The position numbers and the translations under genes were made by a program. Below the pieces are notes generated by a model. The model had not been told where the DNA came from and made no database searches. It saw only the letters and a list, made by a program, of their open reading frames with translations. Shown here one piece after another: positions 11,695-38,929 of a stretch of 64,000 bases of DNA. The stretch is from assembly GCA_025964695.1 (NCBI GenBank), contig JAOPYK010000155.1, positions 59,785 through 123,784 on the forward strand. The letters are read 5' to 3'. Position 1 is the first letter of the stretch, and the number at the start of each line of letters is the position of its first letter. Source of the DNA: Streptosporangiaceae bacterium. Lineage in GTDB: Bacteria; Actinomycetota; Actinomycetes; Streptosporangiales; Streptosporangiaceae.

Positions 11695-12129
11695 GTGAAC
11701 GGGTTCGGTGACTTCGCGAACATCGATGTGGACAAGGTCCTGCGCGAGGCTCAGGGCCAGCAGGCCCGCATTCAGCAGATGCAGGAGCGGATCGCGGAGC
11801 TGGTCGGCCGGGCGTCGGACGAATCCGGGCTGGTCACCGCCACGTTCACGGCCGCCGAAGGGCTCGCCGACCTCGAGATCAAGCCGCGTGCGCTCGCCCC
11901 CGGCTCTCAGGAACTGGCCAAGACCATCAAACAGGTCATCCAGGAGGCCAGTGCCGACCTGCAGGCCCAGATGCGCGCGGTCATGCGGGAGGTCTTCCCC
12001 GACCACGAGTCCGCGCTGGACAAGGACGCCGCCATCGCCAAGGCGCAGGAGGCCAAGGACGCCTTCGACCGGGTGATGACCGACGCCATGGGAGAACTCG
12101 AACAGATCCGTAAGCGCCTCGGTCTCTAG
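11695..12129 (+). CDS. YbaB/EbfC family nucleoid-associated-like protein
   Basis: QQARIQQMQERIAELVGRASDESGLVTATFTAAEGLADLEIKPRAL. Confidence 0.75.
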   Translation: MNGFGDFANIDVDKVLREAQGQQARIQQMQERIAELVGRASDESGLVTATFTAAEGLADLEIKPRALAPGSQELAKTIKQVIQEASADLQAQMRAVMREVFPDHESALDKDAAIAKAQEAKDAFDRVMTDAMGELEQIRKRLGL

Positions 12130-12134
12130 CCCGC

Positions 12135-12824: not shown

Positions 12825-12865
12825 CTCGCGCTCCCTGTTCCTGGCCGGCCGGTGTCAGGCCTGGT

Positions 12866-14002
12866 TCACGCCGTCGGCAGCGTGCTGTTGTTCTCGGCGC
12901 CGTTCCAGTTCGCCGCGTTCCCGTAGAGCGCCGACTTCCATTTCCTGAGCTGATCGTGGCCGTCGGCGAGGTATCTCACGGCCGACTGGCGGACCGTGTC
13001 GTGCGTCGCGTTCAACGGCAGGCCGAGCACGCCGAAGCTCGGGAAGCCCACATGGATCTGCGAGGTCTTCGAGGCGGCGTCGGTCATCTGCGCTCCGGGC
13101 TGGCTGGCCAGCTTGTCGCCCAGTTGCTTCATCGCGGTCTGATCGGCGTTCTTGGTCTGGTTGTCGCCACCGGATCCCTGCGCCGGGTTGTTCGGAGACG
13201 GCGGGAAGCCGGACGGCATTCCACCACCGCCACCGCCCGAGGGCGGGCCGCCTCCCCCGGACGGGGAGCCTCCGCCGCCGCCGGGGGGAGGGGAAGCTCC
13301 GGCGGGGCCACCGCCGGCGGTTTTCGGCGGCTTGACGGCCTTGGGAACGGCCGGTGCGTCCTTCCCCGGGGTGTCAGGGCCGGCTCCGCCCTGCGGCGGG
13401 GCCGGAAGCGCGTGGACCTTGACGTGGCCGCTCTTGTCCTGGGAGAGGTCCAGCTGTACGTGTTTGCCGGCCGCGACGTGGATGCGGGTGTCGTGCGGGT
13501 GGCCGGGGCCCTTGGGCACAGTGATGTCGAGGCTGCCGTCCTGGTTCTTGTGCACCGTGTACGGCACGTGCTGCTTGCCGCCGGGATCGGTGATGTCGGC
13601 CTGGGCGGCGTTCTTACCGAGTCCCTTGACGTCCTCGACAGGGGCATTGTGCGCGGGCTGGAAGCCGGAACCCTGATGGGCGGGAGGCTTGTGCGCCGGC
13701 TGTTGCGCGGGCTGGAAGCCGGAACCCTGATGGACCGGTGGCCGGTGCGCCGGGATGGTGGGGCCTGCTCCCTGCGACGTGCCGGTGGGGGCGCCGTTAC
13801 CCGCCGTACCGGGGACGGTGGCCGGGGTGAAGCCGGTCGGGGTGATCTCGACGGCGGTCGAGCCGTTCGCGTCCGGCGTCACCTGCCGCCCATCGACGTA
13901 GACCGTCACGTCAGGCGCCGATCCGTTCACCGGACCGCTCCGCGCCGCAACCGTACCGGCGGGATTGAGCAGGGCATCGATGCGCGTTCTGCTGTCACTC
14001 AT
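12866..14002 (-). CDS. Pro/Gly-rich T7SS-associated protein
   Basis: Low-complexity P/G-rich middle, HQGSGFQPA repeats, flanked by WXG100 and mycP. Confidence 0.6.
   Translation of the reverse strand: MSDSRTRIDALLNPAGTVAARSGPVNGSAPDVTVYVDGRQVTPDANGSTAVEITPTGFTPATVPGTAGNGAPTGTSQGAGPTIPAHRPPVHQGSGFQPAQQPAHKPPAHQGSGFQPAHNAPVEDVKGLGKNAAQADITDPGGKQHVPYTVHKNQDGSLDITVPKGPGHPHDTRIHVAAGKHVQLDLSQDKSGHVKVHALPAPPQGGAGPDTPGKDAPAVPKAVKPPKTAGGGPAGASPPPGGGGGSPSGGGGPPSGGGGGGMPSGFPPSPNNPAQGSGGDNQTKNADQTAMKQLGDKLASQPGAQMTDAASKTSQIHVGFPSFGVLGLPLNATHDTVRQSAVRYLADGHDQLRKWKSALYGNAANWNGAENNSTLPTA
13650..13733. repeat. Two perfect 30-nt direct repeats (13650-13679, 13704-13733) inside the Pro-rich CDS
   Basis: tgcgcgggctggaagccggaaccctgatgg present twice. 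Confidence 0.9.
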
Positions 14003-14070
14003 CGGCGGCTCCGTTTCGCGGGCGACTCCGTCATGATCCCACTCGCGGCGCTCTGGGCGATACGCCTTGT

Positions 14071-14121
14071 CCGGAAACTCACGACGTCCGGAAACTCACG
14101 ACGTCTGGAAACTCACGACGT
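14071..14121. repeat. Three tandem 17-bp repeats at the 3' end of mycP
   Basis: ccggaaactcacgacgt x2 followed by ctggaaactcacgacgt. Confidence 0.92.
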
Positions 14122-15441
14122 CCGGCGGCCGGAGCGCCAGTGACGGCGGCGGGCGGCCGGCACGATGGCACCGCCGAGAGCGAGCGCGCCGGCGACGACG
14201 AGGGCCCCGCCCGCCAGCGACAGCCCGAGCGTCCGGGTGAAGGTGTCGGTGGGGCCCGGCCGCACGATGGCCACCGCCGGCGGCCGGGCCGAACTCGGCA
14301 CGGCACCGTTCTCCTCGGGCAGCACCGCGGTGACCGCCTGCAGGGGGTTGACGACCCCGGCGCCGGTACCGGCGACCGTTCCGCCGTCCGCGGTGGCCTC
14401 GATCCGGTGCGCCACCTGCTGGTAGGTGAGCTTCGGGTAGTAGGAGCGGACGAGCGCCGCGACACCCGCCACGAAGGGAGCCGAGAAGCTGGTGCCGCTG
14501 TCTTGGCGGTACAACCCGTCCGCCCAGGTGGAGACGACGTCCTTGCCGGGCGCCACCACGGTGACCCGGGTCTGGATGTTGGAGTGTTCCCAGAGCTGCC
14601 CGTCGCTGCCGATGGCTCCCACGGCGACGACTCCCGGATAGTTCGCCGGGTACGCCGGCGCGGCCGTGGAGGCGTCGGCACCGTCCACGTTGCCGGCCGC
14701 GGCCACGATCAGCGCGTCCTTGCTCTGCGCGAAGGTCACCGCCGACTTGAGCAAACGGCTGTCCGGGGCCCGCGACGACACGTTGATGACCTTGGCCCCT
14801 CTTTTCGCGGCCTCCCGGATCGCGTCGGCGAGGAAGCGGGCGTCACTCTTCTCGGCGGTCGCCTCCTTGACGGAAAGGATGCGGGCCGCTGGTGCCACCC
14901 CCACAAACGGTATCTGCTGGGCGCGGAGATCCTGCGCGCCGATGATGCCGGCCGCCATCGTGCCGTGCCCGAGGCAGTCCCGCGTGGTCGTGCGGGTGAC
15001 GTCCAGAGACTGCACGCGGCCTTGCAGTTGGCGATGCGAGACGTCCACGCCGCTGTCCACGACCCCCACCGTGACGCCGGCGCCGCGCGTCAGCGGCCAC
15101 ACGTCGGTGAACCCGAGTTGCCGCTGCGGCCACGGCTCCACCTTGATCTCCGATGCCGGGCTGCCCGCATACTGCAGCTGACACGACACCGTGGGGGTCG
15201 GCTTCGGCGGCTTCTGGGTCACCGTGACCTTGGCGGTCACCGTCTTGCCGGATCCCGTGGTCGGCTTGGCGGACTTGGTCGGCTTGGTGGTCGGCGCGGC
15301 ACCGGGAGCCGCGAGGGCGGGAGGAAGCAGCACCGCGGAGGCCAGGAGGAGACTTCCGCCCGCACCGGCCAGGCCCATGGTCCACTTTCCGGTCACGGCA
15401 CCGGCTGGTCTCCTGGTTCCCGACAGCACGCTCCAGACCAT
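14113..15441 (-). CDS. mycP: Type VII secretion-associated serine protease mycosin
   Basis: Subtilisin triad VGVVDSGVDVSH / GHGTMAAGII / GTSFSAPFVAG, signal peptide and C-terminal TM helix. Confidence 0.93.
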   Translation of the reverse strand: MVWSVLSGTRRPAGAVTGKWTMGLAGAGGSLLLASAVLLPPALAAPGAAPTTKPTKSAKPTTGSGKTVTAKVTVTQKPPKPTPTVSCQLQYAGSPASEIKVEPWPQRQLGFTDVWPLTRGAGVTVGVVDSGVDVSHRQLQGRVQSLDVTRTTTRDCLGHGTMAAGIIGAQDLRAQQIPFVGVAPAARILSVKEATAEKSDARFLADAIREAAKRGAKVINVSSRAPDSRLLKSAVTFAQSKDALIVAAAGNVDGADASTAAPAYPANYPGVVAVGAIGSDGQLWEHSNIQTRVTVVAPGKDVVSTWADGLYRQDSGTSFSAPFVAGVAALVRSYYPKLTYQQVAHRIEATADGGTVAGTGAGVVNPLQAVTAVLPEENGAVPSSARPPAVAIVRPGPTDTFTRTLGLSLAGGALVVAGALALGGAIVPAARRRHWRSGRRTS

Positions 15442-23697: not shown

Positions 23698-23952
23698 TCA
23701 GCCGCCCGCGAATGGCGGCAGCACCTCTACCGTGGCACCTTCGGGCAACCTCACGGTGTCGTGCGGCCGGGTGCCGACCGGGTCACCGTCGATCAGGAAC
23801 GAACTACGCGCGACGACCCTGGAGAACTCCGCATCCCTTGTCCCCCGGGCGGTTTCGAGGGCCTGCGCCAGCGTCGCGGCGTCGAATGGCTCCTCGTCGA
23901 CGCCGGCGGCGGACCGCGCCGCGGCCCAGTATCTGATCACGCCTTTGCCCAT
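23698..23952 (-). CDS. MoaD/ThiS family sulfur carrier protein
   Basis: 84 aa, [18 protein letters not shown] with C-terminal GG. Confidence 0.88.
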
Positions 23953-24109
23953 CTCGTCATGGTCTCATTCGCGCAACGTCGGCAATCCGTCCGTAGCCGC
24001 CCATTGCCGGGAAGTCGTGGTCGGATATCCTCGAACCAGGGATCCGGGCGATGAGGCCTCCGGGTCCTTGACGTCTTTTAGGGGCTGGTCGGAGACGAGG
24101 AGGCGGCAT

Positions 24110-24823
24110 TTGAGCAGCTTGCTGTTGCTCACCAACGCGCTAGAGCCGTCCGATGAGGTGCTCCCCGCGCTGGGGTTGCTGTTGCATTCGATTCGCGTCG
24201 CACCCGCGGAGGCTTCCGCGCTGATCGACGCACCACCCGCCGACGTGATCCTCGTCGACGCCCGCCGTGACCTCGTACAGGCCAAGAGCCTGTGCCGGCT
24301 GCTGCGGACGACCGGCCTGGACTGTCCGCTGCTGGCGATCGTGACGGAGGGCGGCCTGGCCGCGTTGAGCCCCGAATGGGGTCTCGACGACGTCCTGCTG
24401 CAGGGCTCCGGGCCTGCCGAGGTGGAGGCGCGATTGCGGCTGGCGGTCGGCCGGGTGTCCATCGGGGAGCCCGACGACGTGCCGGGCGAGATTCGCAGCG
24501 GTGATCTCACGATCGACGAGGCGACCTACACGGCGCGGCTGCGCGGGCGGGTGCTGGATCTGACGTTCAAGGAGTTCGAACTCCTCAAGTACCTCGCACA
24601 GCATCCGGGCCGGGTCTTCACCCGCGCCCAGCTGCTGCAGGAGGTGTGGGGGTACGACTACTTCGGCGGCACGCGGACCGTGGACGTGCACGTACGACGG
24701 CTGCGGGCCAAGCTCGGCGCGGAGTACGAGTCGCTCATCGGCACGGTGCGTAACGTGGGCTACCGGTTCGTCCCGGATCACCGTCCGGGTGACAACGAAG
24801 CGATGGTGGCCGTCGGCACCTGA
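24110..24823 (+). CDS. glnR: OmpR-family transcriptional regulator, GlnR
   Basis: Winged-helix [54 protein letters not shown]; GlnR-like receiver; next to mshD as in mycobacteria. Confidence 0.85.
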
Positions 24824-24934
24824 AATTGGAACGCTCTGTTTCGTTGACCCGGAGGTCACCGCCGCCCCCCGGGCCGACGGGACGGACACGGCCCGCGTGG
24901 CGGGTACCGGTCGTCCCGGCATAGGCTGACGATC

Positions 24935-25846
24935 ATGGCTGAGCGGGATGTGGTCGTACGAGAGCGGCCGACCGGGCAAGAGATCGACCAGGTTCTGCGG
25001 CTGGCCGAGGACGCCACCGTGCGCGACGGCGTACGACCGCTCTCCGAGCACTCGCTGCTGGCGCTGCGTCACGGCGGCAAGGGGCGGTCACTGAGCCTGC
25101 TGATGCTGGCGGCGGGGTCCGTGGTCGGCTACGGCCATCTCGATCCGCCCACCGAGACCGAGTCCGCCGCGGCGGAACTGGTCGTCCATCCGGACCATCG
25201 GCGGAACGGGCACGGCCGGGCCCTGGCCGAAGCCCTGCTGGCCCAGGCCGGGAGCCTGCGGGTGTGGGCACATGGCGACCTGCCCGCCGCCGGGGCGCTG
25301 GCGGATTCGCTCGGCTTCGCCAGGATGCGCGCGCTGCTGCAACTGCGGCGCCCGCTGGCCGAGCCGCTGCCCGAGGTGAGAATGCCCCCGGGCGTACGGA
25401 TCCGGACGTTCCAGCCGGGGCAGGACGAGCAGGCCTGGATCGGCGTCAACGCACGGGCCTTCTCGCACCATCCCGAGCAGGGCTCCTGGACCGTCGATGA
25501 CCTGCAGGACCGGGCGGCCGAGTCCTGGTTCGACCCGGCAGGCTTCTTCCTGGCCGAACGGGACGGCCGGCTCGCCGGGTTCCACTGGACCAAGGTCCAC
25601 CCGGGGGACCCGCCCATCGGGGAGGTCTACGTGGTGGGCGTTGACCCCGGCGAGCAGGGCACCGGGCTCGGCCGGGCGCTGACCCTGACCGGGCTGCACC
25701 ATCTGCGCTCGCTGGGCCTGTCGCACGTCATGCTGTACGTCGACGAGGACAACGCCGCCGCCGTGCGACTGTACGAGTCCCTGGGATTCACCCGCTGGAA
25801 CACCGATGTGATGTACGGCAACGCCCGAAGGACCGCCGCGCCTTGA
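24935..25846 (+). CDS. mshD: Mycothiol synthase (two GNAT domains)
   Basis: HPEQGSWTVDDLQDRAAESWFDPAGFFLAERDGRLAGFHWTKVH...YVVGVDPGEQGTGLGRALT. Confidence 0.93.
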   Translation: MAERDVVVRERPTGQEIDQVLRLAEDATVRDGVRPLSEHSLLALRHGGKGRSLSLLMLAAGSVVGYGHLDPPTETESAAAELVVHPDHRRNGHGRALAEALLAQAGSLRVWAHGDLPAAGALADSLGFARMRALLQLRRPLAEPLPEVRMPPGVRIRTFQPGQDEQAWIGVNARAFSHHPEQGSWTVDDLQDRAAESWFDPAGFFLAERDGRLAGFHWTKVHPGDPPIGEVYVVGVDPGEQGTGLGRALTLTGLHHLRSLGLSHVMLYVDEDNAAAVRLYESLGFTRWNTDVMYGNARRTAAP

Positions 25847-25918
25847 CCATCACCTGGGAACCTGTTCACCTGGCGTCAATATCAAATCGAGACATTCTTC
25901 CTGGCGCCGCCCAATCCA

Positions 25919-25940
25919 GTTCACCTTCCGTTCACCTGGA
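25919..25940 (+). promoter_or_regulatory. PHO box upstream of pstS
   Basis: Two adjacent 11-bp direct repeats GTTCACCTTCC GTTCACCTGGA; further GTTCACCTGGC at 25864-25874. Confidence 0.75.
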
Positions 25941-26049
25941 TCAGGGTGCTTGGACACCTCTCCTGCCTAGGTTCATGCCTGACGGTGGCCCCACTGCCTG
26001 GACAAACACGGGGATACCACCGCCCACCAACTCAGGAGGAGAATTCCCC

Positions 26050-27156
26050 GTGAAGAACGGCACTCGGTTCGCCGCGCTCGGCGGCGTAGTCGTTGCGGGT
26101 GCGCTCGCACTCTCTGCGTGCGGGTCTGACAACAACACCAGCGGCTCGACGAGTTCCGCTCCCGCCGCGTCCTCGAGCGACTGCGCCAAGGGCACCGTCA
26201 ACGCCGCCGGCTCCAGCGCCCAGAAGAACGCGATCGAGGAGTGGTCGAAGGGTTACAGCGCAGGTTGCGCCGGTGCCACCCTCAACTACAACCCGAGCGG
26301 CTCTGGCGCCGGCGTGCAGGCCTTCACGGCCGGCCAGGTCGCCTTCGCGGGCTCGGACTCGGCGCTGAAGCCCGAGGAACACGCCCCGGCCGACGCGCGC
26401 TGCAAGACCGGCAAGGCCATCGACCTGCCCATGGTCGTCGGCCCGATCGCGGTCGCCTACAACCTCAAGGGCGTCACCGGCCTCCAGCTCTCGCCGGCCA
26501 CCACCGCGGGCATCTTCGCCGGGACCATCAAGACCTGGAACGACCCCGCGATCAAGAAGGACAACCCAAGCGCCACGCTGCCGTCCACGCCGATCAAGAC
26601 GCTGCACCGCTCAGACGACTCGGGTACGACGGACAACTTCACCAAGTACCTCACCGCCACCGCCCCCGACATCTGGAAGTTCGCCGGCGGCAAGAAGTGG
26701 ACCGCTCCGGGCGGTCAGGGCCTCAAGGGCTCGGACGGTGTCTCCACCGCACTGAAGCAGACCGACGGATCCGTCGGCTACGTCGAGATGTCGTTCGCGA
26801 CCAACAACAGCCTCTCGACCGCCAAGGTCAAGAACGGCGCCGGTGAGTACGTCGACCTGACCCCCGAGAACGCCGGCAAGTCCGTCGCCAGCGCCGCCCC
26901 TGTCGGCACCGGCAACGACCTGGCACTGAAGATCGACTACAAGACCACCGCCGCGGGTGCCTACCCGATCGTCCTGGTCACGTACGAGATCGTCTGTGAG
27001 AAGGGCCTCCCGACCGAGCAGGCCAACTTCGTCAAGGCCTTCCTGACCTACACCTCGGGCTCCGCAGGACAGTCCGCGCTCACCAAGCTCGGCTACGCCC
27101 CGCTTCCCGACAGTGTTCTCACCAAGGTTCAGACCGCTGTGAAGGCGCTGTCCTGA
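26050..27156 (+). CDS. pstS: Phosphate ABC transporter substrate-binding lipoprotein PstS
   Basis: Lipobox LALSAC; NAAGSSAQKNAIEEWSKGY, KTLHRSDDSGTTDNFTKYL. Confidence 0.95.
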   Translation: MKNGTRFAALGGVVVAGALALSACGSDNNTSGSTSSAPAASSSDCAKGTVNAAGSSAQKNAIEEWSKGYSAGCAGATLNYNPSGSGAGVQAFTAGQVAFAGSDSALKPEEHAPADARCKTGKAIDLPMVVGPIAVAYNLKGVTGLQLSPATTAGIFAGTIKTWNDPAIKKDNPSATLPSTPIKTLHRSDDSGTTDNFTKYLTATAPDIWKFAGGKKWTAPGGQGLKGSDGVSTALKQTDGSVGYVEMSFATNNSLSTAKVKNGAGEYVDLTPENAGKSVASAAPVGTGNDLALKIDYKTTAAGAYPIVLVTYEIVCEKGLPTEQANFVKAFLTYTSGSAGQSALTKLGYAPLPDSVLTKVQTAVKALS

Positions 27157-27171
27157 CCAGGAAGAACAACC

Positions 27172-27202
27172 GCCCCGCCACCGAGGATCTCGGTGGCGGG
27201 GC
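27172..27202 (+). terminator. Hairpin between pstS and pstC
   Basis: GCCCCGCCACCGAG-gat-CTCGGTGGCGGGGC, 14-bp perfect stem. Confidence 0.75.
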
Positions 27203-27281
27203 ACGTTCTGTCCCTGGGGAGGGTTCGGGGCCGACCCCCCGCGCCGTCCCCGGTCCCCCGGACTTTGAGGGAGGCAACCCC

Positions 27282-28265
27282 GTGACCAGCGAGACGCGCG
27301 TCGACCAGGCGGTCGCGACTGGAGCTCAGCACCGTGGCGGCCGCAGGATGAGCACCGGACGGCTGGGCGACCGGCTCTTCGCGGGTGCCGCCCGTGGTTC
27401 CGGGATCACGATCCTGGCCATCATGGCGGCGATCGCCGCGTTCCTGATCTGGAAGGCGATCCCCGCCCTCCAGGCCGACAAGTCGAACTTCCTGACCGCC
27501 CAGGAATGGAATCCGGACGGCACCCCTGCCAGCTTCGGCATCGCGCAGCTGGCCTTCGGCACGGTGCTGTCATCGTTCCTGGCACTGATCATCGCGACGC
27601 CGGTGGCGATCGGCATCGCGCTGTTCATCTCGTTCTACGCGCCCAAGCGGCTCGCGAGCGGGCTCGGCTACGTCGTCGACCTCCTGGCGGCCGTGCCCAG
27701 CATCGTGTACGGCCTGTGGGGCCTGAACTTCCTCGTGACGAGGATGACCTCGATCTCGGGCTTCCTCAACGACTACTTCGGCTGGATCCCGCTCTTCGGC
27801 GGCGGCAACCCCGGAGGCAGGTCGATCTTCACCGCCTCCGTCGTGCTGGCCATCATGATCCTGCCGATCATCTCCGCCATTTCCCGTGAGGTCTTCCTGC
27901 AGGTGCCACGGACCAACGTGGAGGCCGCGCTGGCACTGGGCGCGACCCGCTGGGAGATGATCCGGATGGCCGTCCTGCCGTTCGGCCGCTCCGGTGTGAT
28001 CAGCGCCGCGATGCTCGGCCTGGGCCGGGCGATGGGCGAGACGATCGCCGTCGCGATGGTGCTGTCGGTCACCCCGGGGATCAACTGGCACATCCTGCAG
28101 GACGGCGGCAACACCTTCGCCGCCAACATCGCCAACACCTTCGGAATGGCCGCCCCGGTCGGGAAGAACGCCCTCATCGCCTCCGGTCTCGTGCTCTTCG
28201 TCATCACCCTGCTGGTCAACATGGGCGCCCGGTGGGTCGTCGCCAGGCGCAAGGAGTTCGTGTGA
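27282..28265 (+). CDS. pstC: Phosphate ABC transporter permease PstC
   Basis: MetI-like permease; SREVFLQVPRTNVEAALALGATRWEMIRMAVLP. Confidence 0.95.
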   Translation: MTSETRVDQAVATGAQHRGGRRMSTGRLGDRLFAGAARGSGITILAIMAAIAAFLIWKAIPALQADKSNFLTAQEWNPDGTPASFGIAQLAFGTVLSSFLALIIATPVAIGIALFISFYAPKRLASGLGYVVDLLAAVPSIVYGLWGLNFLVTRMTSISGFLNDYFGWIPLFGGGNPGGRSIFTASVVLAIMILPIISAISREVFLQVPRTNVEAALALGATRWEMIRMAVLPFGRSGVISAAMLGLGRAMGETIAVAMVLSVTPGINWHILQDGGNTFAANIANTFGMAAPVGKNALIASGLVLFVITLLVNMGARWVVARRKEFV

Positions 28266-29158
28266 GCGCCATCACTTCCAGGCAGATCCCGTCGCTGACC
28301 CAGGTCTCACCCGTCCGCAAGATCAAGGACCGGGTCGTCCAGGGACTGGTCTACCTGTCCTTCATATTGGCGCTGATCCCGCTGGTGTCTGTGCTGTGGA
28401 CCGTGGTCAGCAACGGCATTGGCCGGCTGGACGCCACCTTCCTCACCCACTCCATGAACGCGGTGTCCGGCAAGGACCCCGGGGGCGGCGCCTATCACGC
28501 AATCGTCGGCACGCTGGAGCAGGTCGGCCTGGCAGCCCTGATCGCCGTACCTCTCGGCCTGTTCACCGCCATCTACCTGGTGGAGTACTCCAGGAACGGT
28601 CGGCTCTCCAAGACGGTCAGCTTCTTCGTGGACGTCATGACCGGTGTCCCGTCGATCGTCGCGGGCCTGTTCGTGCTGGCCTTCTGGCTGCTCGGGCTGG
28701 GTTTCGACTTCTCCGGCTTCGCCGGGGCGATGGCGCTGGCGATCCTGATGACCCCCACAGTGGTGCGTACCACCGAGGAGATGCTCAAACTGGTCCCGAA
28801 CGACCTGCGCGAGGCCTCCTTCGCGCTGGGCGTACCGCGCTGGCGGACCATCATGTTCGTCGTGCTGCCGACCGCGCTCACCGGCATCCTGTCCGGTGTC
28901 ATGCTCGCGGTGGCCCGGGTCATGGGTGAGACGGCCCCGCTGCTGCTCACCATCTTCGTCACCAAAGCGATCAACACCGATCCGTTCAACGGACCGCAGG
29001 GCTCGCTGCCGACCTTCATCTGGGACCAGTCGACCGACCCGAACCACAATGCGGTCGACCGAGCCTGGGCCGGCGCCCTCTTGCTGATCCTTATCATCAT
29101 GCTGCTCAACCTGGTGGCTCGGCTGATCGCCTGGCTGCGTAAGCCTGCTACCCGCTAA
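28262..29158 (+). CDS. pstA: Phosphate ABC transporter permease PstA
   Basis: [34 protein letters not shown]; overlaps pstC stop. Confidence 0.95.
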
Positions 29159-29171
29159 GGAGTCCCATCCC

Positions 29172-29948
29172 ATGGCCAAGCGGATCGAAGTCTCCGGACT
29201 CAACGCCTACTACGGTCAGGTCCACGCCATCGAGGACGTCTCGATGACCGTTGAGCCGCGCTCGGTCACGGCCTTCATCGGCCCGTCCGGCTGTGGCAAG
29301 TCGACCCTCCTGCGCACCCTCAACCGGATGCACGAGGTGATCCCGGGCACGCGGGTCGAAGGCAAGGTGTTCCTCGACGACGAGGACCTCTACGCTCCGT
29401 CGGTCGACCCGGTGGCGGTCCGGCGGGTCGTCGGCATGGTCTTCCAGCGCCCCAACCCGTTCCCGACCATGTCCATCTACGACAACGTGGCTGCGGGGCT
29501 CAAACTCAACGGGGTGCGGCGCAAGGCCCAGCTCGATGAGATCGTCGAGCGGTCCCTGAAGCACTCGAACCTGTGGAACGAGGTCAAGGACCGGCTCGCC
29601 AAGCCGGGCGCCGGCCTGTCCGGTGGTCAGCAGCAGCGGCTCTGCATCGCCCGGGCCATCGCGGTGGAGCCGCAGGTGCTGCTGATGGACGAGCCGTGCT
29701 CGGCTCTCGACCCGATCTCGACGCTGGCGATCGAGGATCTGGTGTCCCAGCTCAAGACGCAGTACACCATCGTCATCGTCACCCACAACATGCAACAGGC
29801 CGCCCGGGTGAGCGACCGTACGGCCTTTTTCAATATCGCGGGGGCCGGCAAGCCCGGCCGGCTGGTGGAGATCGACGACACCAGCAAGATCTTCACCAAC
29901 CCCACCGAGAAGGCGACCGAGGACTACATCACCGGCCGCTTCGGCTGA
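29172..29948 (+). CDS. pstB: Phosphate ABC transporter ATP-binding protein PstB
   Basis: [37 protein letters not shown]. Confidence 0.96.
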
Positions 29949-29973
29949 TCCTCGCCAGCCCGGCACTCACCCC

Positions 29974-30022
29974 TGTGGTGATATCGCGGTTCGTGCCGAC
30001 CCCGAACCGCGAGATCACCACA
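29974..30022. repeat. Palindromic repeat, copy 1 (47-nt core 29975-30021), bidirectional terminator-like
   Basis: TGTGGTGATATCGCGGTTCG...CGAACCGCGAGATCACCACA; arms match 19/20. Confidence 0.8.
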
Positions 30023-30029
30023 TGGTTCT

Positions 30030-30233
30030 TCAGTCCTGGATGTCGTAACCCGCCTGGTCGATGGCCGCGCGCAGAGCCGGGTCGTACAGGTCCTCGCCCC
30101 GGACCGTGACCACCTTGGCGGTGACGTCGACCGCCACCTCTGCCACCCCGGGCACCTGGCGGACCTCACCGGTGATCGCGTTCACGCAGTGGTCACAGCT
30201 GATCGCGGGCACGCTGTAGCGGACCTCGGTCAT
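30030..30233 (-). CDS. Heavy-metal-associated (HMA, CopZ-like) protein
   Basis: 67 aa, MTEVRYSVPAISCDHCVNAITGEV with CxxC. Confidence 0.9.
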   Translation of the reverse strand: MTEVRYSVPAISCDHCVNAITGEVRQVPGVAEVAVDVTAKVVTVRGEDLYDPALRAAIDQAGYDIQD

Positions 30234-30543
30234 GTGCTTCTCCTGTGGTGATTGTCACTCAACACTCCGCTGACCGCCGCCGCGGCCTAGCCCTGCCGAT
30301 CGACCGTACGGCATCGGCGTCCCCCGAATCGACTGTGGGAGCGGGGATCCGGCAAGCGAGTCGGATGTGGCCGCCGTCGCGCAGCGGTGACCGGCGTTTC
30401 CACGGCGAGTGGCGCCCGGGCCAGGGGCAACGTGGAGGTGAGAGGATGGTGGACCTCTTCCAAAGTCGGAGCGAAGGTTCTTTTTCACTCCGGTTACGCC
30501 TACCATCCTCTGCGGATCGTTTCCCGCTCTTCAGGAGTACGCC

Positions 30544-31161
30544 GTGCGATTGCGTCTCACGCCGCGTGAGGACAGTTTCTACGACCTGTTCACGGACTCC
30601 GCGAACAACCTGGTCACCGGTGCCAGATTGCTCGTGGAACTCATCGCCGACGGCACCGATAGGGAAGCCGCCGCGGAAAAGCTCCGCGCCTGTGAACACG
30701 CGGGCGACGAGCTGACTCATGCGATCATGCGCCGGCTGAACGAAAGCTTCATCACCCCGTTCGACCGGGAGGACATCTACCGGCTCGCCTCGCTGCTCGA
30801 CGACGTCATGGACTACATGGAGGAGGCGGCCGACCTGGTCGTCCTCTACAAGATCGATGAGCTTCCCAAGGACATCGTCGGCCAGGTCGAGGTTTTGGAA
30901 CGTGCCGCTGAGCTGACAGCCGACGCCATGCCCCGGCTGCGGTCGATGAAGGAGCTCAATGAGTACTGGATCGAGATCAACCGGCTGGAGAACCAGGGCG
31001 ACCAGGTCTACCGGCGGCTGCTGGCCAAGCTTTTCGGCGGCGACTACGATGCGCTGACCGTGATGAAGCTCAAGCAGGTGATCGACTGTCTGGAGGAGGC
31101 CGCCGACGCCTTCGAGCACGTGGCCAACACCATCGAGACCATCGCGGTCAAGGAGTCCTGA
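30544..31161 (+). CDS. DUF47 family (PhoU-like) PiT accessory protein
   Basis: All-helical, REDSFYDLFTDSANNLVTGARLLVEL; adjacent to PiT permease. Confidence 0.9.
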   Translation: MRLRLTPREDSFYDLFTDSANNLVTGARLLVELIADGTDREAAAEKLRACEHAGDELTHAIMRRLNESFITPFDREDIYRLASLLDDVMDYMEEAADLVVLYKIDELPKDIVGQVEVLERAAELTADAMPRLRSMKELNEYWIEINRLENQGDQVYRRLLAKLFGGDYDALTVMKLKQVIDCLEEAADAFEHVANTIETIAVKES

Positions 31162-31254
31162 GCAGGTGACGAGCCGCCAGGCGCGGAACCGGGCGAATCA
31201 CGCTGCACCGCGCGACCGTGAAGACGTCTCCGTCCCATCGGGTGAGGAGACGCC

Positions 31255-32385
31255 ATGAGTAGTACGCTCGCCAAGTCCCCGGCCCCGCAGGGCGAGGCCC
31301 CCACTTCCCGAGGGCACGGCAGGGCCGCGCTCATCCTGCTGACCGGCGTGGTGCTGGTCTCCCTGGCGGCGCTGATCGGCCGACGCACCGGCTCCGAGTC
31401 GACGGTGCTCATCCTGGTCATCTTGGTGGCGCTCGCCTTCGAGTACACCAACGGCTTTCACGACGCGGCCAACGCGATCGCCACCTCGGTCTCCACCCGG
31501 GCGCTGACGCCCCGTGCCGCTCTGCTGATGGCCGCCGCCATGAACCTGCTGGGCGCGTTCCTCGGCCAGCAGGTGGCCAAGACCATCAGCAGCGTGATCA
31601 CTCCCCCTTCCGGGGTGGCCGGGCTGATGGTGGTGGCGGCCGGAGTGCTCGGAGCGATCAGCTGGAACCTCATCACCTGGTATTTCGGGCTGCCGTCCTC
31701 GTCTTCGCACGCGCTCATCGGAGGCACGGTCGGCGCCGGTCTCGCCGCCTCGGTGACGGTCAACTGGAGCACGGTGGTCGACAAGGTCGTCATCCCGATG
31801 GTGGTCTCACCGCTCGTCGGTTTCTTCGTCGCCTACCTGGTGATGGTCGCCATTCTGTGGATCTTCCGCCGGGCGAACCCCGCGCGGGTGGGCCGCGGCT
31901 TCCGGATCGCGCAGACGCTGTCCGCCGCCTCGATGGCGCTCGGCCACGGTCTGCAGGACGCGCAGAAGACCATGGGCATCATCGTCCTGGCCCTGGTCGC
32001 CACCGGGCACTCGGACGGCAAGTCGATCCCGGTCTGGGTGGTCATCTCCTGCGCCGGGATCCTTTCCCTGGGCACCTACGCCGGCGGCTGGCGGATCATG
32101 CGCACGCTGGGCCGCAAGGTGATCGAACTCGATCCGCCCAAGGGTTTCGCGGCCGAGGCCACGGCCTCCGCGATCCTCTACGCGGCCGCCTACATCTGGA
32201 AGGCGCCGATCTCCACGACCCATGTCATCACCGCGTCCGTCATGGGCGTGGGTTCGACCAAGCGGCTCTCGGCGGTGCGCTGGGGGGTGGCCGGCAACAT
32301 CGTGCTGGCCTGGATCTTCACGATTCCGATGGCCGGCCTGGTCGCCGCGGTCGTGTACGGGCTCATCCATCTGTTCAGCGGCTGA
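31255..32385 (+). CDS. Inorganic phosphate transporter, PiT family
   Basis: EYTNGFHDAANAIATSVSTRALTPRAAL; GLPSSSSHALIGG. Confidence 0.95.
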   Translation: MSSTLAKSPAPQGEAPTSRGHGRAALILLTGVVLVSLAALIGRRTGSESTVLILVILVALAFEYTNGFHDAANAIATSVSTRALTPRAALLMAAAMNLLGAFLGQQVAKTISSVITPPSGVAGLMVVAAGVLGAISWNLITWYFGLPSSSSHALIGGTVGAGLAASVTVNWSTVVDKVVIPMVVSPLVGFFVAYLVMVAILWIFRRANPARVGRGFRIAQTLSAASMALGHGLQDAQKTMGIIVLALVATGHSDGKSIPVWVVISCAGILSLGTYAGGWRIMRTLGRKVIELDPPKGFAAEATASAILYAAAYIWKAPISTTHVITASVMGVGSTKRLSAVRWGVAGNIVLAWIFTIPMAGLVAAVVYGLIHLFSG

Positions 32386-32814: not shown

Positions 32815-35800
32815 TCAGCCTGGATTGTTCTGATGCAGATCGCCGAGCATCCGCTCCAGCGCGGACTCGGGCAGGTCACGGGCGCTGAGCCGGGCGACGG
32901 TCGCGGCGGTCACTTCCTGCCCGGCCAGCCGTGCCGCCTGCCGGGCCACCGACTGCTCGAAGATCTCCCGGACCGTCCGGCCGTTGGCGAAACTCTCGTC
33001 GTCACGGGTCCGGGCGAAGCGTGCCATCAGCTCGACCCGAAGCTCCTCGTCGAGCATGTAGAGGTCCCGTTCGGCGAACCGCTGGAACAGCTGGACGAGC
33101 TCCCGGTCGGTGAAGTCGGCGAACTCCACGACCTCCCCGAACAGTTCCCGGAAGGCCGGGCTGTTCGCCAGGAAGCCGTCCATCTCCGGGGCCGAGCTCG
33201 TACAGATGACGATGAACCGGCCGCGCCGCTCCTCCATGTAACGCAGCAGCTCGGTCACCACGTCGGGCGAGCGTTCCAGCCGGTAGGCCTCCTGGATGAG
33301 GAGCACCCCGCCCAGGGCCTGCTCGACCATGGCGTACACCCGGTTCTCGGTGTCGATGAGGTCGCGACCGGCCAGATGGACCGGGCGGCAGGCGACGATG
33401 TGACCCGAGTCGAGCAGCCCCAGCGCGGCGTAGATGCCTCCGACCAGCCCGGCCACGGTCATCTTCCCGGTGCCGGGACGGCCCACGAAGATCAGATTTC
33501 GGATGGTCCCCGCGCCGCCGCGGGCCTCCTCGGCCAGCCCGTGCACCGTCTCCTTCACGTGGTCGAGGCCGATCATCTGATCGAGCCGGCGCAGGAAACC
33601 GTCGACGTCACCGGGCGGGCGGAGCGAGGGCTCGATCTCCGCGGCGACCCCGGTGAAGTCCTCCGGGGTGAGCACCAGGCGGTCCCGTGACCCACCCGCA
33701 CGTCCGACGTGCCGCTGACAGGCCCGTTCCAGATACGCCTCCACCAGCCGCGAGTTGACCAGCTCGCCCGGGCCCCGCAATCGGGACAGATCCTCGCTTA
33801 CCACGTCGAGGGCGGCGGAGTCGACCGTGGCCCTGCGTTCGTCGGCCAGCACGTGCAGGACCGCCAGCCGGGTCGCCAGATCGCTGAGATCGGGCAGCCG
33901 GAACACCCGGAAGGCCGCCAGCAGCTCCGGGAAGTCCTGGGCCAGCCGGCGGTGGGCACGCGGGTTGCAGGTGGCGACCAACGCCGTCCGCGTGGGCCGG
34001 TCCGCCCGCGCCGTCCGTACGGCTTCGGCCATCGCCGCCGGGTCCGGCGACTCCATGATCGCCGCATCCAGCCGCTCGAACAGCATGGCCGCGCCGGCTC
34101 CGCCGCCGGGTTCGAACACGGACTGGATCCGCTCGGGCGGGACACCTCGCACGTCGTCGGCGTCGGCGATGCGGACCGCACCGTCGCCCGCGCCCGCGTC
34201 GGCCAGGGTGAGCGCGATCATCCGGGCCAGCCGCCGCTGACCGGTGTGCGCCTCACCGATGAGCAGCACGCTGGGCGGCACCGCCCTGCTCTGCGCTGCG
34301 GGCTCCACAATGCCCTGCGCCCAGCCCGCCCCGCTGTGGAGTTCGTCGAGCAGTACGGCGGGGTCCCGCTCCCCCTCCGGCTCCTCCCCCACCCGGGAGA
34401 CGAAACGGACGCCGAATCGCTCAGTGATCGGGCGCGGCTCCTCCTCCACCGGCGGCTCGATGTCCTCGACCCGCTGGTCGGGCAGCGGAGCGTAGTCCAG
34501 GATGTCGCCGACCATGGTCTCGGACATGACCCGGGTGCCCGGGTTGTCACCGGCCGCACCGGGCCGGGGCGGTACCGGCCCCGGTACCGGCCCCGGTCCG
34601 TGCCCGTACCTGCCCGCGGGGTCGGGCGAGGTCTGTTCCGCGCCCAGCACCCGCGTATGAGGCGGCCCCTCAGCACCGGGCACCGCCGGCCGCCCGGCGC
34701 CGGGAACTCCGGGGCCGTCCATCCGGGTCGCCATGGGATCGTCGCTGGACATCGGTGGCGGCGACCATTGCTGATCCGGAGCCTGCTGGGGGCCCTGGTC
34801 CGGGGCTTGGCCCGCGAACTGCCCGCGAGACTCCGCCTCGGGCGGCCCGTAGAGCGGGCCGGCCGGGCCCTGCGGCGGCGCGAACGGGTCCTGGGGTCCG
34901 TACGGGTCTTGGGGCGCACCCGGGCCTTGCGTGCCGCCGGGAGCCGGCCGGCCCTGGCCGGGGCCGAAACCGAGCGCGGCGTAGGGCACCGCGAAGTCGT
35001 CCTTGCGCTCCGGCTGCGCACCGGTGGGGCCGGGCACCGGTGGCTGTGTCGGGCCCGGATCGGCCGGGTCCTGGCCGTACCGGCCGGGTTCCTGACCGGG
35101 CATCCCGAACGCGGCCGGCCGTGCGGGATCGCCCCACTGGCCGCCGGGCTGGGCATCCGGCCCGTCCCCGGGTTGCATCCCGGGTTGCATCGGCTGCCGG
35201 CCGCCGGGCTGCATGGGTTGGCCACCGGGCTGTGCGGGCGACTGGGCGCCCCACGGCATGCCCGGCACGTCGAGCGGGGGCTGGATCGGCGGCAGGCCAC
35301 CCGGAAGTCCGAAACCCGCTCCCCACTGCTGCGCGGCCGGATCCGCAGGGGTCTGCGGTAGTTCAGCGGCGGGCGGCTGACCGGGCGTCTGGCCGGGTGA
35401 GCCCACCGGGGAGGGTGCGAAGGCGCCCGCGCCCCAGCCGGGCTGGGCGGGGGCACCCTGCTGCGCGCCGCCGGGAGGGTACTGCTGGGCCAGCGGCGCG
35501 ACCCCCGGCGGGGACGTGATCGGCGCGGCCGCGGCCGCGGCGCGAGCCCGGTCCACCCCGATGAGCTCGGTGATGATGGCGGTGGGCACCGGAAAGCCGC
35601 GGGGCCGGGCGGGCATCCCTCCGGCGAGCCGGCACCAGGCCAGATCGACGTCGTAGACGGCGGCGAGCAGGGACTCGGTGCGATCCCCGAGTGCGGCCCG
35701 CAGCTGTTCCGGCAGCCGGTTGTCCACCGGCCAGAGCCTGCGCAGCGGGTGTCCGTTCTGGCTGAGGACCGCCTGCACCGTGTAACGGATCTCCGGGTCC

Positions 35801-36927
35801 AGCCAGGGGACGACCTGCTCGACCTTGTCGCGCTTGGTGACGGCCAGGTCCGCGGCGACGAGCGCGGCCGCCACCAGGCGTGGCTCCAGATAGGACGGCT
35901 CGGCCGGATCGCCCATGACCGGGGTGACGGCCTTGGCCAGGTCGTAGTAGGCGTGCCGGAAGTTGTCGCCGGGCGAGCTCTCGATCCGCATCGCCGGCGC
36001 CAGGTTGGGCGGGACCCTGGTGACCCACTGCTGCACCAGCGCCTGGTCGCCGTACGGCAGCGCGCCGTAGTCGACGGTGGGATTGCTGAGGGTCGCGCCC
36101 ACGACCGCGATCAGTGCGTCGGCGCGGGCACGGAACCGAACGTCCTCGCGCAGCGCGCTGGCGACAGCCCACATGGTGCGCAGCACGACCACGGCGGCGT
36201 CGACGCGGCCGGCGCGCAGCCGCTCCGCGTACAGCCCGACGAGGGCCTCCAGCGGAGGCGCGGTAAGCCAGCGCGGCCCGTCGACCACGGGCAGCGGCTT
36301 GGCCCGGTACGGCGTCCAGATGCCGAGCATGTCGTCGTCCAGCCGGGAGTCGAAGACCGGCGCGGCGGCACACCACAGCATGACGCCCCAGGAGACGGCC
36401 ACGGTGCTCGGCGCCGAAGAGGAGAACAGCGCCCACCAGTGCGGATAGTCCTGTGCGGGCAGCGCCGCGGCCGACTCGACGGTGGCCCGGACCCGGGCGG
36501 ACAGCTCCGGCGAGAGGTCCTGGCCGACGAACGGCAGCGGTTCGGGGATGTCGTAGTCGAAGTCGGGCCCGGCGGGCACCACGTGCGGCGGCAGTGCGGG
36601 GACGCCCTGACCTTGCTGGACCGGGCGCGCGGACTGCCGGGTGGCCACCGACTGCGGCGGCGGGCAGAGGTACCACTGGCCGTCGGAGGGATGCCAGCGA
36701 TACCAGCGCGCCCAGGCGCCGAAGATCCACCAGGTGCCGTCGGGAAGTGCGAGAACACGCCCGGCCACCGCGTGCTGGCGCTGCTGAGGGGGAGCCGCCG
36801 GCCACCAGGCCGCGGACACCATCGCCCTGGTGTCGTGCTCCGCCGCGGTGAACGGATCCAGCGCGGGCTGCTGCGGCATGGCGCCATAACCGCCGCCGCT
36901 GCCAACTCCCCATGCCACGAAGCTCAT
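32815..36927 (-). CDS. Large multidomain AAA (EccA/CbxX-like) protein with Pro/Gln-rich linker; both ATPase modules appear degenerate
   Basis: C-terminal LIFVGRPGTGKMTVAGLVGGIYAALG... GGVLLIQEAYRLE...; upstream module PPSVLLIGEAHTGQRRLARMIA; ~370 aa P/Q-rich linker. Confidence 0.8.
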   Translation of the reverse strand: MSFVAWGVGSGGGYGAMPQQPALDPFTAAEHDTRAMVSAAWWPAAPPQQRQHAVAGRVLALPDGTWWIFGAWARWYRWHPSDGQWYLCPPPQSVATRQSARPVQQGQGVPALPPHVVPAGPDFDYDIPEPLPFVGQDLSPELSARVRATVESAAALPAQDYPHWWALFSSSAPSTVAVSWGVMLWCAAAPVFDSRLDDDMLGIWTPYRAKPLPVVDGPRWLTAPPLEALVGLYAERLRAGRVDAAVVVLRTMWAVASALREDVRFRARADALIAVVGATLSNPTVDYGALPYGDQALVQQWVTRVPPNLAPAMRIESSPGDNFRHAYYDLAKAVTPVMGDPAEPSYLEPRLVAAALVAADLAVTKRDKVEQVVPWLDPEIRYTVQAVLSQNGHPLRRLWPVDNRLPEQLRAALGDRTESLLAAVYDVDLAWCRLAGGMPARPRGFPVPTAIITELIGVDRARAAAAAAPITSPPGVAPLAQQYPPGGAQQGAPAQPGWGAGAFAPSPVGSPGQTPGQPPAAELPQTPADPAAQQWGAGFGLPGGLPPIQPPLDVPGMPWGAQSPAQPGGQPMQPGGRQPMQPGMQPGDGPDAQPGGQWGDPARPAAFGMPGQEPGRYGQDPADPGPTQPPVPGPTGAQPERKDDFAVPYAALGFGPGQGRPAPGGTQGPGAPQDPYGPQDPFAPPQGPAGPLYGPPEAESRGQFAGQAPDQGPQQAPDQQWSPPPMSSDDPMATRMDGPGVPGAGRPAVPGAEGPPHTRVLGAEQTSPDPAGRYGHGPGPVPGPVPPRPGAAGDNPGTRVMSETMVGDILDYAPLPDQRVEDIEPPVEEEPRPITERFGVRFVSRVGEEPEGERDPAVLLDELHSGAGWAQGIVEPAAQSRAVPPSVLLIGEAHTGQRRLARMIALTLADAGAGDGAVRIADADDVRGVPPERIQSVFEPGGGAGAAMLFERLDAAIMESPDPAAMAEAVRTARADRPTRTALVATCNPRAHRRLAQDFPELLAAFRVFRLPDLSDLATRLAVLHVLADERRATVDSAALDVVSEDLSRLRGPGELVNSRLVEAYLERACQRHVGRAGGSRDRLVLTPEDFTGVAAEIEPSLRPPGDVDGFLRRLDQMIGLDHVKETVHGLAEEARGGAGTIRNLIFVGRPGTGKMTVAGLVGGIYAALGLLDSGHIVACRPVHLAGRDLIDTENRVYAMVEQALGGVLLIQEAYRLERSPDVVTELLRYMEERRGRFIVICTSSAPEMDGFLANSPAFRELFGEVVEFADFTDRELVQLFQRFAERDLYMLDEELRVELMARFARTRDDESFANGRTVREIFEQSVARQAARLAGQEVTAATVARLSARDLPESALERMLGDLHQNNPG

Positions 36928-37037: not shown

Positions 37038-37562
37038 TCAGGAGTTCCACTCGGCCGTGCGGTGACGCTGTGCCTTCTCCACATAGGTCTTCGAGGTGTA
37101 CGCGAGTACGGCGCGGTCGTCGTCGGTCAGCTCGCGGACCACCTTGCCCGGCACTCCCGCGACGAGCACTCCGGAGGGGATCTTCTTTCCCGGGGGCACC
37201 AGGGCGCCGGCCGCGACGAGCGTGCCCGCGCCGATCCTGGCCCCGCCGAGCACGATCGCGCCGATCCCGATGAGGGAGCCGGTCTCGACATGCGCTCCGT
37301 GCACCATCGCCTTGTGGCCCAGGCTCACCCGGTCCTCGAGGATCGTCGGCTGGCCGGGGTCGCAGTGCAGGCAGCACATGTCCTGGATGTTCACCTCGTC
37401 GCCGACCACGACCTCTTCGTCGTCGGCTCGCAGCACCGAGCCGTACCAGACGCTGGAGTGGCGGCCCAGCGTCACCTTGCCGACCACCACCGCCCCCGGC
37501 GCTATCCACGCGTCCGGATGGATCGTCGGCCTGTCCGTGCCCAGCACACCCACGTAGCTCAT
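37038..37562 (-). CDS. Gamma-class carbonic anhydrase-like protein (left-handed beta-helix)
   Basis: HPDAWIAPGAVVVGKVTLGRHSSVWYGSVLRAD...VSLGHKAMVHGAHVETGSLIGIGAIV. Confidence 0.9.
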   Translation of the reverse strand: MSYVGVLGTDRPTIHPDAWIAPGAVVVGKVTLGRHSSVWYGSVLRADDEEVVVGDEVNIQDMCCLHCDPGQPTILEDRVSLGHKAMVHGAHVETGSLIGIGAIVLGGARIGAGTLVAAGALVPPGKKIPSGVLVAGVPGKVVRELTDDDRAVLAYTSKTYVEKAQRHRTAEWNS

Positions 37563-37909
37563 GCACACCATGGTGCCCTGCGCGAAGGGCGGCCAGAAGA
37601 CGGGGGCCCGAGACCACCGGTGACCTGCGGCCGGGCGAAGTGGCGGCGACTGGCCGTACGGTGCTATGGCGAAGTCGCTGCCTGCGAAGATGTTCGGCGG
37701 CGCCGCCGAGGCCGGGCGCTCCGGGCCTGCTTTCGGTCTCACCGCATGCCCGCTCGTGGGAGCAATGGAACGGATATTTCGTGATATGACGCAACGCGTG
37801 GGCCAGTGTTAGGTCACAGAATCGCACCAGGTACAAGCGTTCCGGTTGCGCGAATGGGGTGGATCGGACGAGAGTCGATTCTTGACGACCCTCCGACCCC
37901 CTTAGGCTC

Positions 37910-38929
37910 ATGAGCAACGAAACTGAGATCCTCCCGAACCTCCTCCGGGACGAGTCCTTCGAGATCGTGATGCGCGGCTACAACCGCCGTCAGGTCGACG
38001 ACGCCCTCGCCCGCACCCAGACCCAGATCCGCGACCTCGAGACCCGGCTCGCCCGCGCCCTCGATGACGTCGAACGGACCCGCCGCGAGATGGCCGAGGT
38101 CCGTGAGGCGCGCAAGCCCACGGGCGACGACCTTAGTGACCGACTGCGTCAGATCATCAACCTTGCCGAGGACGAGGCCAAAGACAAGCTGGCCGAAGCC
38201 GAGGACCGTGGCATCCAGATCCGCAAGGAAGCCGACACCGAGGCCAAGCGGATCGTCGATGACGCCCGCAGCCACGCCGACCATGACGTCGCGACCGCGC
38301 AGGAGAAGGCCAATCAAGTTCTCGGCGCGGCCAAGAAGGAGTCCGACAGCGTCCTGACGCTGGCCAAGCAGGAGGCCGAGCAGACCGTGACGAGCGCCCG
38401 GCTCGAAGCCGAGCGCACGCTCACGGCGGCCGAGCGCCGCGCAAGCGTCATCAACGAAGGCGCGACACAGCGACTGGCCTTCCTCACCAAGAACCACACG
38501 CAGGCGTTGCAGCGGCTCACCGAGATCAGTGACACGCTCAACACCCTGCTGAAGGGTGAGGCGGACGCCGGCCCGCTGGAGAAGATGATCGACGACGCGG
38601 TCGCCAAGCAGGTGCCGCGCAAGCACGCCGCCCCCACCGGCGCCCCGGTCAAGTCGCCTGCGCACGCGGCTCAGGCCCCGGCCCCGGTGGCCAAGCCTGC
38701 TCCCATGGCCAAGCCCGCCCCTGTCGCCCCTGCCCAGCAGATCCCCAAGCCGGCTGTATCCGCGCCGTTCGCCTCGCATGACGCGACCGGCTCGGAGTCC
38801 GCCACCGCCAAGCCCGCCACCCCGGCGGAGCCCTCTGAGCCGAAGGCACCCGCCATCTCGGAAAACGAATCCACCCGGCAGATGCACACCCCGGCCCCCA
38901 GGCCGGCCGATCCCGGCATTCCCTCGTAG
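37910..38929 (+). CDS. DivIVA-domain coiled-coil protein
   Basis: SFEIVMRGYNRRQVDDALARTQTQI then long coiled coil and Pro/Ala-rich tail. Confidence 0.82.
   Translation: MSNETEILPNLLRDESFEIVMRGYNRRQVDDALARTQTQIRDLETRLARALDDVERTRREMAEVREARKPTGDDLSDRLRQIINLAEDEAKDKLAEAEDRGIQIRKEADTEAKRIVDDARSHADHDVATAQEKANQVLGAAKKESDSVLTLAKQEAEQTVTSARLEAERTLTAAERRASVINEGATQRLAFLTKNHTQALQRLTEISDTLNTLLKGEADAGPLEKMIDDAVAKQVPRKHAAPTGAPVKSPAHAAQAPAPVAKPAPMAKPAPVAPAQQIPKPAVSAPFASHDATGSESATAKPATPAEPSEPKAPAISENESTRQMHTPAPRPADPGIPS

What the first reader, a model, noticed from the sequence alone, without database searches (positions are those of the whole stretch)
32815..36927. EccA/CbxX-like protein with two apparently dead AAA modules
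Seen: the C-terminal module keeps the CbxX/EccA outline, but Walker A reads GRPGTGK-M-T (Mg-coordinating T/S replaced by Met), Walker B reads VLLI-Q-EAY (expected D-E), and the expected arginine-finger-like SRF segment reads SPAFRELF. The upstream module has GEAHTG-Q-RRL instead of GxxxxGK[ST], and AMLFERLDA where a Walker B would be. Established: these residues are needed for hydrolysis in AAA+ proteins. Inference: this is a pseudo-ATPase scaffold. Its ~370-aa Pro/Gln-rich linker and the T7SS locus ~15 kb away suggest a structural or chaperone role in type VII secretion, or a new role altogether.
Basis: partly seen in the sequence, partly recalled or inferred. Interest (0 to 1): 0.75.

Follow-up and report, generated by a model that had tools for sequence, protein, structure and literature searches.

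The report
Protein with a degenerate AAA pair
A large actinomycete protein carries two motor-like AAA domains whose ATP-burning parts have been lost, and stayed lost, across dozens of related species; they are attached to a conserved, unclassified front domain that stands alone in other relatives, so it is probably a scaffold or regulator rather than a motor, and there is no good reason to tie it to type VII secretion.

Summary
The 1370-1387 aa protein (window 32815-36927/36978, minus strand) has two CbbX/EccA/SpoVK-type AAA modules with the stated substitutions.

69 orthologs, from Thermomonosporaceae-type actinomycetes, separate old losses from recent ones.
- Module 1: pseudo-P-loop GxxH[ST]GQRR, Lys replaced in 69/69. 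A paralog keeps this module and nearly always ends right after it.
- Module 2: Walker A Lys kept in 68/69, Ser/Thr in 56/69; the Met is confined to this lineage and a sister MAG. Walker B Asp is absent in 69/69 (Gln 63, Glu 6), the catalytic Glu mostly remains, the second arginine is mostly lost.

Both modules are under purifying selection. Module 1 is an ancient pseudo-AAA; module 2 probably still binds nucleotide in most species but hydrolyses poorly or not at all.

The T7SS link is weak: the gene persists where eccB is absent.

New here: the N-terminal ~440 aa is the best conserved part, matches no Pfam or PDB entry, and stands alone at the same locus in other Streptosporangiales. A third paralog sits inside the Pup-proteasome cluster. 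The linker carries strongly enriched TR[VML] motifs.

Most likely: a partner-binding adaptor whose degenerate AAA pair serves as an oligomerisation or nucleotide-gated scaffold.

The parts
32815..36927 (-). The whole gene (longest reading to 36978, 1387 aa; likely start near 36918-36927)
35539..36870 (-). N-terminal domain (residues 37-480): Trp-rich beta segment plus helical array; most conserved part; no Pfam or PDB match
34327..35538 (-). Pro/Gly/Ala/Gln-rich linker (residues 481-884), length 244-1320 aa in orthologs
34714..34728 (-). Linker motif TRMDG (residues 751-755)
   Evidence: TR[VML] 156 observed against 3.1 in shuffles over 61 linkers
34642..34656 (-). Linker motif TRVLG (residues 775-779)
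34522..34536 (-). Linker motif TRVMS (residues 815-819), continuing ETMVGDI
33643..34326 (-). Module 1, pseudo-AAA (residues 885-1112)
   Evidence: predicted AAA fold; motifs
34231..34257 (-). Module 1 pseudo-P-loop GEAHTGQRR (residues 908-916)
   Evidence: Q in 68/69 orthologs, next residue R in 69/69
34063..34089 (-). Module 1 Walker B position AMLFERLDA (residues 964-972)
   Evidence: mostly hhhFERLD in orthologs; LLLE/LLLD in paralogs
32863..33597 (-). Module 2, CbbX/EccA/SpoVK-clade AAA module with AAA_lid_6 (residues 1128-1372)
33457..33483 (-). Module 2 Walker A GRPGTGKMT (residues 1166-1174)
33283..33306 (-). Module 2 Walker B VLLIQEAY (residues 1225-1232)
   Evidence: Asp 0/69, Gln 63/69, Glu 6/69
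33139..33162 (-). Module 2 arginine-finger segment SPAFRELF (residues 1273-1280)
   Evidence: first R kept in 58/69; second R in 7/69 orthologs
32968..32991 (-). Module 2 sensor-2 segment FANGRTVR (residues 1330-1337), Arg kept
   Evidence: Arg in 63/69
37038..37742 (-). Upstream hexapeptide-repeat (gamma-carbonic-anhydrase-like) gene, conserved syntenic marker of this locus
37910..38929 (+). DivIVA-domain gene, conserved syntenic marker

Best explanation
The protein is an adaptor or scaffold, not a motor. Its conserved N-terminal domain does the specific partner binding; that domain is the ancestral, self-sufficient part. A long flexible linker carries repeated TR[VML] docking motifs. A degenerate AAA pair of the CbbX/EccA/SpoVK clade provides assembly. 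Module 1 is an ancient nucleotide-independent pseudo-AAA that serves as a structural or protein-contact surface. Module 2 most likely still binds nucleotide in most species and uses it as a slow or non-hydrolysing switch for oligomerisation; in this lineage (GKM) even Mg-nucleotide binding is probably weakened. Shown: conservation of the losses, predicted AAA fold, purifying selection, modular history, motif enrichment. Inferred: nucleotide state, oligomerisation, docking, and the adaptor role.
For: Module 1 Lys and Thr replaced in 69/69 orthologs. The same GQRR occurs in the form-B paralog, where module 1 is the C-terminal end of the protein in all 13 sampled copies outside this genome. Module 2 Walker B Asp absent in 69/69, while Walker A Lys is kept in 68/69 and sensor-2 Arg in 63/69. 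The predicted C-terminal structure aligns with CbbX (E 7e-14) and across both modules with ClpC and p97 tandems. dN/dS well below 1 in both modules in close pairs (0.08-0.37) and lowest in the N-domain (0.10-0.17). Stand-alone N-domain proteins at the same syntenic locus in other genera, so the AAA pair is an accessory part. TR[VML] enriched about 50-fold in type-A linkers and absent from paralog linkers. Characterised members of this AAA clade are dedicated chaperones with variable partner-recruiting N-termini (PMC10659427).
Against: No biochemical data. Module 2 keeps the P-loop, the catalytic Glu (59/69) and sensor 2 in most orthologs, so residual hydrolysis is possible; Gln at Walker B is not proof of inactivity. 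Relative placement of the two modules in the model is uncertain (pTM 0.57). Partner and ligand are unknown, and the TR[VML] reading is inference.
Confidence: 0.6

Rival explanations
1. Module 2 is a working though atypical ATPase in most orthologs, with Gln taking over the Walker B Asp role, and only this genome and a few relatives have lost it; the protein is then a chaperone like CbbX or EccA.
For: GK[TS] in 56/69, Walker A Lys in 68/69, Walker B Glu in 59/69, first arginine and sensor 2 mostly kept.
Against: Walker B Asp 0/69; second arginine in only 7/69; the sensor-1 GY Tyr that marks the clade in 0/69; Walker A Ser/Thr state changed at least 5 times on the tree.
Confidence: 0.25
2. A type VII secretion accessory (an EccA substitute): the genome has no EccA above the curated cut-off, and the protein would present WXG100 substrates to EccC.
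For: Distant similarity to EccA; gene and eccB within about 25-60 kb in nine Thermomonosporaceae-type genomes; no TIGR03922 hit over cut-off in this genome.
Against: Not in the T7SS cluster; no T7SS gene within 6 kb of orthologs. Present without eccB in G178; stand-alone N-domain homologues in G016, G061 and G191 without eccB and 1.7-1.8 Mb from it in G070 and G050. Another tandem CbxX protein with canonical motifs (contig C124, 300 bits) is a better EccA candidate.
Confidence: 0.08
3. The AAA pair is decaying and without function; the C-terminus is evolutionary debris behind a working N-domain.
For: Recurrent further losses in module 2; module 2 gone in most form-B paralogs.
Against: Nearly all orthologs are single open frames through both modules (L039 is split over two frames); purifying selection on both modules; GQRR kept across two paralogous lineages.
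Confidence: 0.07

Closest known systems
SpoVK / CbbX / EccA clade of AAA+ chaperones (PMC10659427)
   Same: Module 2 resembles it by sequence and predicted fold; variable N-terminal recruiting domain joined to the AAA part; AAA_lid_6.
   Different: Walker B Asp lost in all orthologs, GY signature lost, second arginine mostly lost; a preceding pseudo-AAA module; unclassified N-domain; long low-complexity linker.
EccA (type VII secretion cytosolic ATPase; TIGR03922)
   Same: Helical N-terminal array plus a C-terminal CbbX-like AAA domain.
   Different: Scores 106.8 bits against a cut-off of 466.65; N-domain shows only insignificant similarity to TPR structures; not in a T7SS operon; degenerate catalytic residues.
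Tandem AAA machines with one weak ring (p97, NSF/Sec18, Pex1/Pex6, ClpC)
   Same: Two AAA modules in one chain; Foldseek aligns both modules; degenerate rings that keep assembly are known there.
   Different: Here neither module has a full catalytic set and module 2 is of the CbbX-type clade.
Degenerate ATPase (DUF) domain of EccC (PMC11154593)
   Same: A conserved pseudo-ATPase domain used structurally in an actinobacterial machine.
   Different: EccC is an FtsK/SpoIIIE-type translocase and a core T7SS part; this protein is neither.

Membership tests
SpoVK/CbbX/EccA clade (module 2) | Sequence similarity to the clade | tested here: met
   SpoVK 3.7e-38, EccA 1.1e-30, CbbX 5.3e-29; CbbX structures 2.5e-42 by profile
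SpoVK/CbbX/EccA clade (module 2) | GY signature with Tyr in sensor 1 (PMC10659427) | tested here: not met
   Tyr in 0/69; window reads CTSSAPEM
SpoVK/CbbX/EccA clade (module 2) | Asn four residues before the first arginine finger (PMC10659427) | tested here: inconclusive
   Asn in 51/69 orthologs, Ser in the window
SpoVK/CbbX/EccA clade (module 2) | Second arginine finger (sensor 2) (PMC10659427) | tested here: met
   Arg 1334 in the window; Arg in 63/69 orthologs
Active AAA+ ATPase | Walker A GxxxxGK[ST] | tested here: not met
   Window: module 1 GQR, module 2 GKM. Orthologs: module 1 never, module 2 in 56/69
Active AAA+ ATPase | Walker B Asp and following Glu | tested here: not met
   Module 2 Asp 0/69, Glu 59/69; module 1 reads FER or similar
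Active AAA+ ATPase | ATP hydrolysis | not testable with these tools
   needs purified protein
EccA (T7SS) | Score above the curated EccA cut-off | tested here: not met
   106.8 bits against 466.65
EccA (T7SS) | Encoded in a T7SS cluster and found only with T7SS | tested here: not met
   17.4 kb from the cluster here; present without eccB in G178
EccA (T7SS) | N-terminal TPR domain | tested here: inconclusive
   Helical array in the model, but all PDB fold hits have E above 0.5; the EccA5 TPR domain at E 3.6

The most novel reading that the evidence does not exclude
The N-domain defines a new actinobacterial protein family that works with intracellular protein quality control: one paralog is embedded between prcB and pup in the Pup-proteasome cluster, and the window's form has acquired a catalytically silent AAA pair to make a non-hydrolysing, phospho-dockable adaptor (TRV motifs as FHA-type sites), a bacterial counterpart of pseudo-AAA adaptors.
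Probability: 0.15. Interest if true: 0.75.

Novelty: new variant of a known kind. Interest (0 to 1): 0.5.

Why it matters
Conserved pseudo-AAA modules are well known in eukaryotic machines but rarely traced through a whole bacterial lineage. Here the losses can be ordered: module 1 before a gene duplication, module 2 Walker B before the radiation of the orthologs, module 2 Walker A repeatedly. The family also exposes a widespread, conserved domain with no Pfam name, no matching solved fold and a paralog inside the proteasome cluster, which makes its function testable.

Tried and rejected
Sequencing error or decay: rejected, because the sister MAG L018 shares GKM and IQEA and selection is purifying. 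T7SS dedication: tested by distance and by absence of eccB; rejected. Anti-phage defence: no PADLOC match. Known N-domain family: none in Pfam across 29 members, and no PDB match by sequence or fold. Module 1 outside this family: its profile found nothing in 296 class genomes except the two that carry forms A and B. N-domain outside the window's GTDB family: none among 395 class genomes. Dead ends: alignment A3 used two wrong reading frames and is not relied on; A4 replaces it. Several early genome-search runs failed. A literature search for this clade found one directly relevant comparative study and nothing on this protein family.

Full report
Observation. The quoted motifs are all there. 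The C-terminal module is a clear but distant relative of the SpoVK/EccA/CbbX group, well below the equivalog cut-offs. The upstream module has almost no sequence match to known AAA families (AAA_lid_6 and AAA at E 0.006-0.1). The structure predicted from 28 sequences (mean pLDDT 77.5, pTM 0.57) is nevertheless a tandem AAA: best PDB matches are CbbX (E 7e-14), then ClpC and p97 chains aligned over both modules. The first strand and helix of module 1 flank the GEAHTGQRR segment as they would a P-loop.

Orthologs. A genome scan gave about 60 loci, nearly all in Actinomadura, Actinoallomurus, Thermomonospora and Spirillospora. With copies from whole genomes, 69 distinct orthologs were compared (the paralog L003 and a second copy of the window's own sequence, L157, are left out of the counts). 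Module 1: the P-loop Lys is Gln in 68 and Glu in one; the next residue is Arg in all; the Walker B position reads hhhFERLD or close. Module 2: Lys kept in 68; Ser/Thr in 56, with Ala in 9, Met in 2 (window and its sister MAG L018) and Arg in 2; Walker B Asp never (Gln 63, Glu 6); the following Glu in 59; first arginine in 58; second arginine in 7; sensor-1 Tyr never; sensor-2 Arg in 63. On a tree built without these columns, the Walker A Ser/Thr state changes at least five times (polarity unsure), while the Walker B Asp state changes once, between the paralog and all orthologs.

Selection. In close pairs dN/dS is 0.10-0.17 for the N-domain, 0.08-0.37 for module 1, 0.13-0.26 for module 2 and 0.22-0.37 for the linker (simple Nei-Gojobori counts in GC-rich DNA, so only the order of magnitude is meant). 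Both modules are maintained.

The wider family. The N-terminal domain (residues about 37-480) is the best conserved part. A profile of it matches 132 of 200 genomes of the order and, in a class-wide sample, only genomes of the window's own GTDB family. Four forms exist. Form S: N-domain alone, about 460-550 aa, at the same locus next to the hexapeptide and DivIVA genes in other genera (five of five examined). Form A: the window's architecture. Form B: N-domain, linker and module 1; in 13 sampled genomes it ends after module 1, in the window's genome it keeps a module 2 with GGPGSGKS and IDRA. Form C: N-domain without AAA, lying between prcB and pup in the Pup-proteasome cluster in the window's genome and two others; the neighbours were confirmed by Pfam as Pup ligase/Dop, proteasome subunits, proteasomal ATPase and Pup. 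The simplest history is an AAA-less ancestor at this locus that gained a linker and an AAA pair; loss in the other genera is not excluded. That form B exists with module 1 alone is the strongest sign that the pseudo-module has a use of its own. The N-domain model is confident (pLDDT 86) but matches nothing in the PDB (best E 0.54), so a new fold or a very divergent helical repeat is possible.

Linker. Type-A linkers are 244-1320 aa long. They contain 156 TR[VML] motifs in 61 sequences, against 3.1 in shuffled ones (the sequences are related, so the count overstates independent events, but the motifs sit in variable sequence). Form B, C and S proteins lack them in their linkers. The pattern (A/G/E)TRV(D/L/M)(G/S) resembles pT-x-x-D and pT-x-x-L ligands of FHA domains (PMC3146460), an inference only.

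T7SS. The cluster in the window (eccB, eccD, eccC, mycosin-like subtilase) ends 17.4 kb away. In nine genomes with form A, eccB lies about 25-60 kb off, a real but loose synteny. One single-contig genome (G178) has form A and no eccB; G016, G061 and G191 have form S and no eccB; in G070 and G050 the two are 1.7-1.8 Mb apart. Dependence on T7SS is therefore rejected; a loose neighbourhood remains. The window's genome has no EccA above cut-off, but a canonical tandem CbxX protein on another contig is the better candidate.

Mechanism. Established knowledge: the P-loop and the Walker B Asp bind the triphosphate and Mg, and the residue after it activates water in AAA+ proteins (PMC9599734); EccA AAA domains both hydrolyse ATP and oligomerise (PMC9118679); [quoted passage not shown] Applied here, module 1 should not bind ATP in the normal way, and module 2 should bind it in most species but hydrolyse poorly. 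The best reading is an adaptor whose N-domain binds the partner and whose AAA pair gives assembly, perhaps switched by nucleotide occupancy. The partner is unknown; the form-C locus points to protein quality control and is the lead most worth testing.

Noticed in passing
L076:8093-9733; L115:8833-10944; L118:8866-10431: A paralog of the N-domain lies between prcB and pup inside the Pup-proteasome gene cluster, in opposite orientation.
   Followed up: partly
L116, L117, L119, L127-L136: Second long paralog ends right after the pseudo-AAA module 1 in 13 sampled genomes; only the window's genome keeps a module 2 (L077:8516-11956).
   Followed up: yes
window 34522-34728: Enriched TR[VML][DLME][GS] short motifs in the linker, specific to this form of the protein; possible phosphothreonine docking sites.
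   Followed up: partly
L005/L007/L072/L074 (own genome contig C31, 1212 aa): Triple CbxX-type AAA protein whose first two modules deviate (GTGKG with VVDDLD, GTGKTK with VIEDAH) while the third has a canonical Walker B.
   Followed up: no
own genome contig C124:52267-54012 (L070, L071): 861-aa protein with two canonical CbxX modules, the best EccA-like candidate in a genome without an EccA above cut-off.
   Followed up: no
L062:5254-12162: The Actinoallomurus iriomotensis form of the protein is an open frame of 2303 aa, with a linker of over 1000 residues.
   Followed up: no
window 23732-32385: Phosphate genes (ABC-type, DUF47 and PiT transporter) next to the gene; the DUF47 and PiT genes are conserved beside nearly all orthologs (54 loci).
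   Followed up: partly
window 2228-15441: Type VII secretion cluster with EccB, EccD, EccC, WXG100/PPE-type proteins, a YbaB-like protein and a mycosin-like subtilase.
   Followed up: partly
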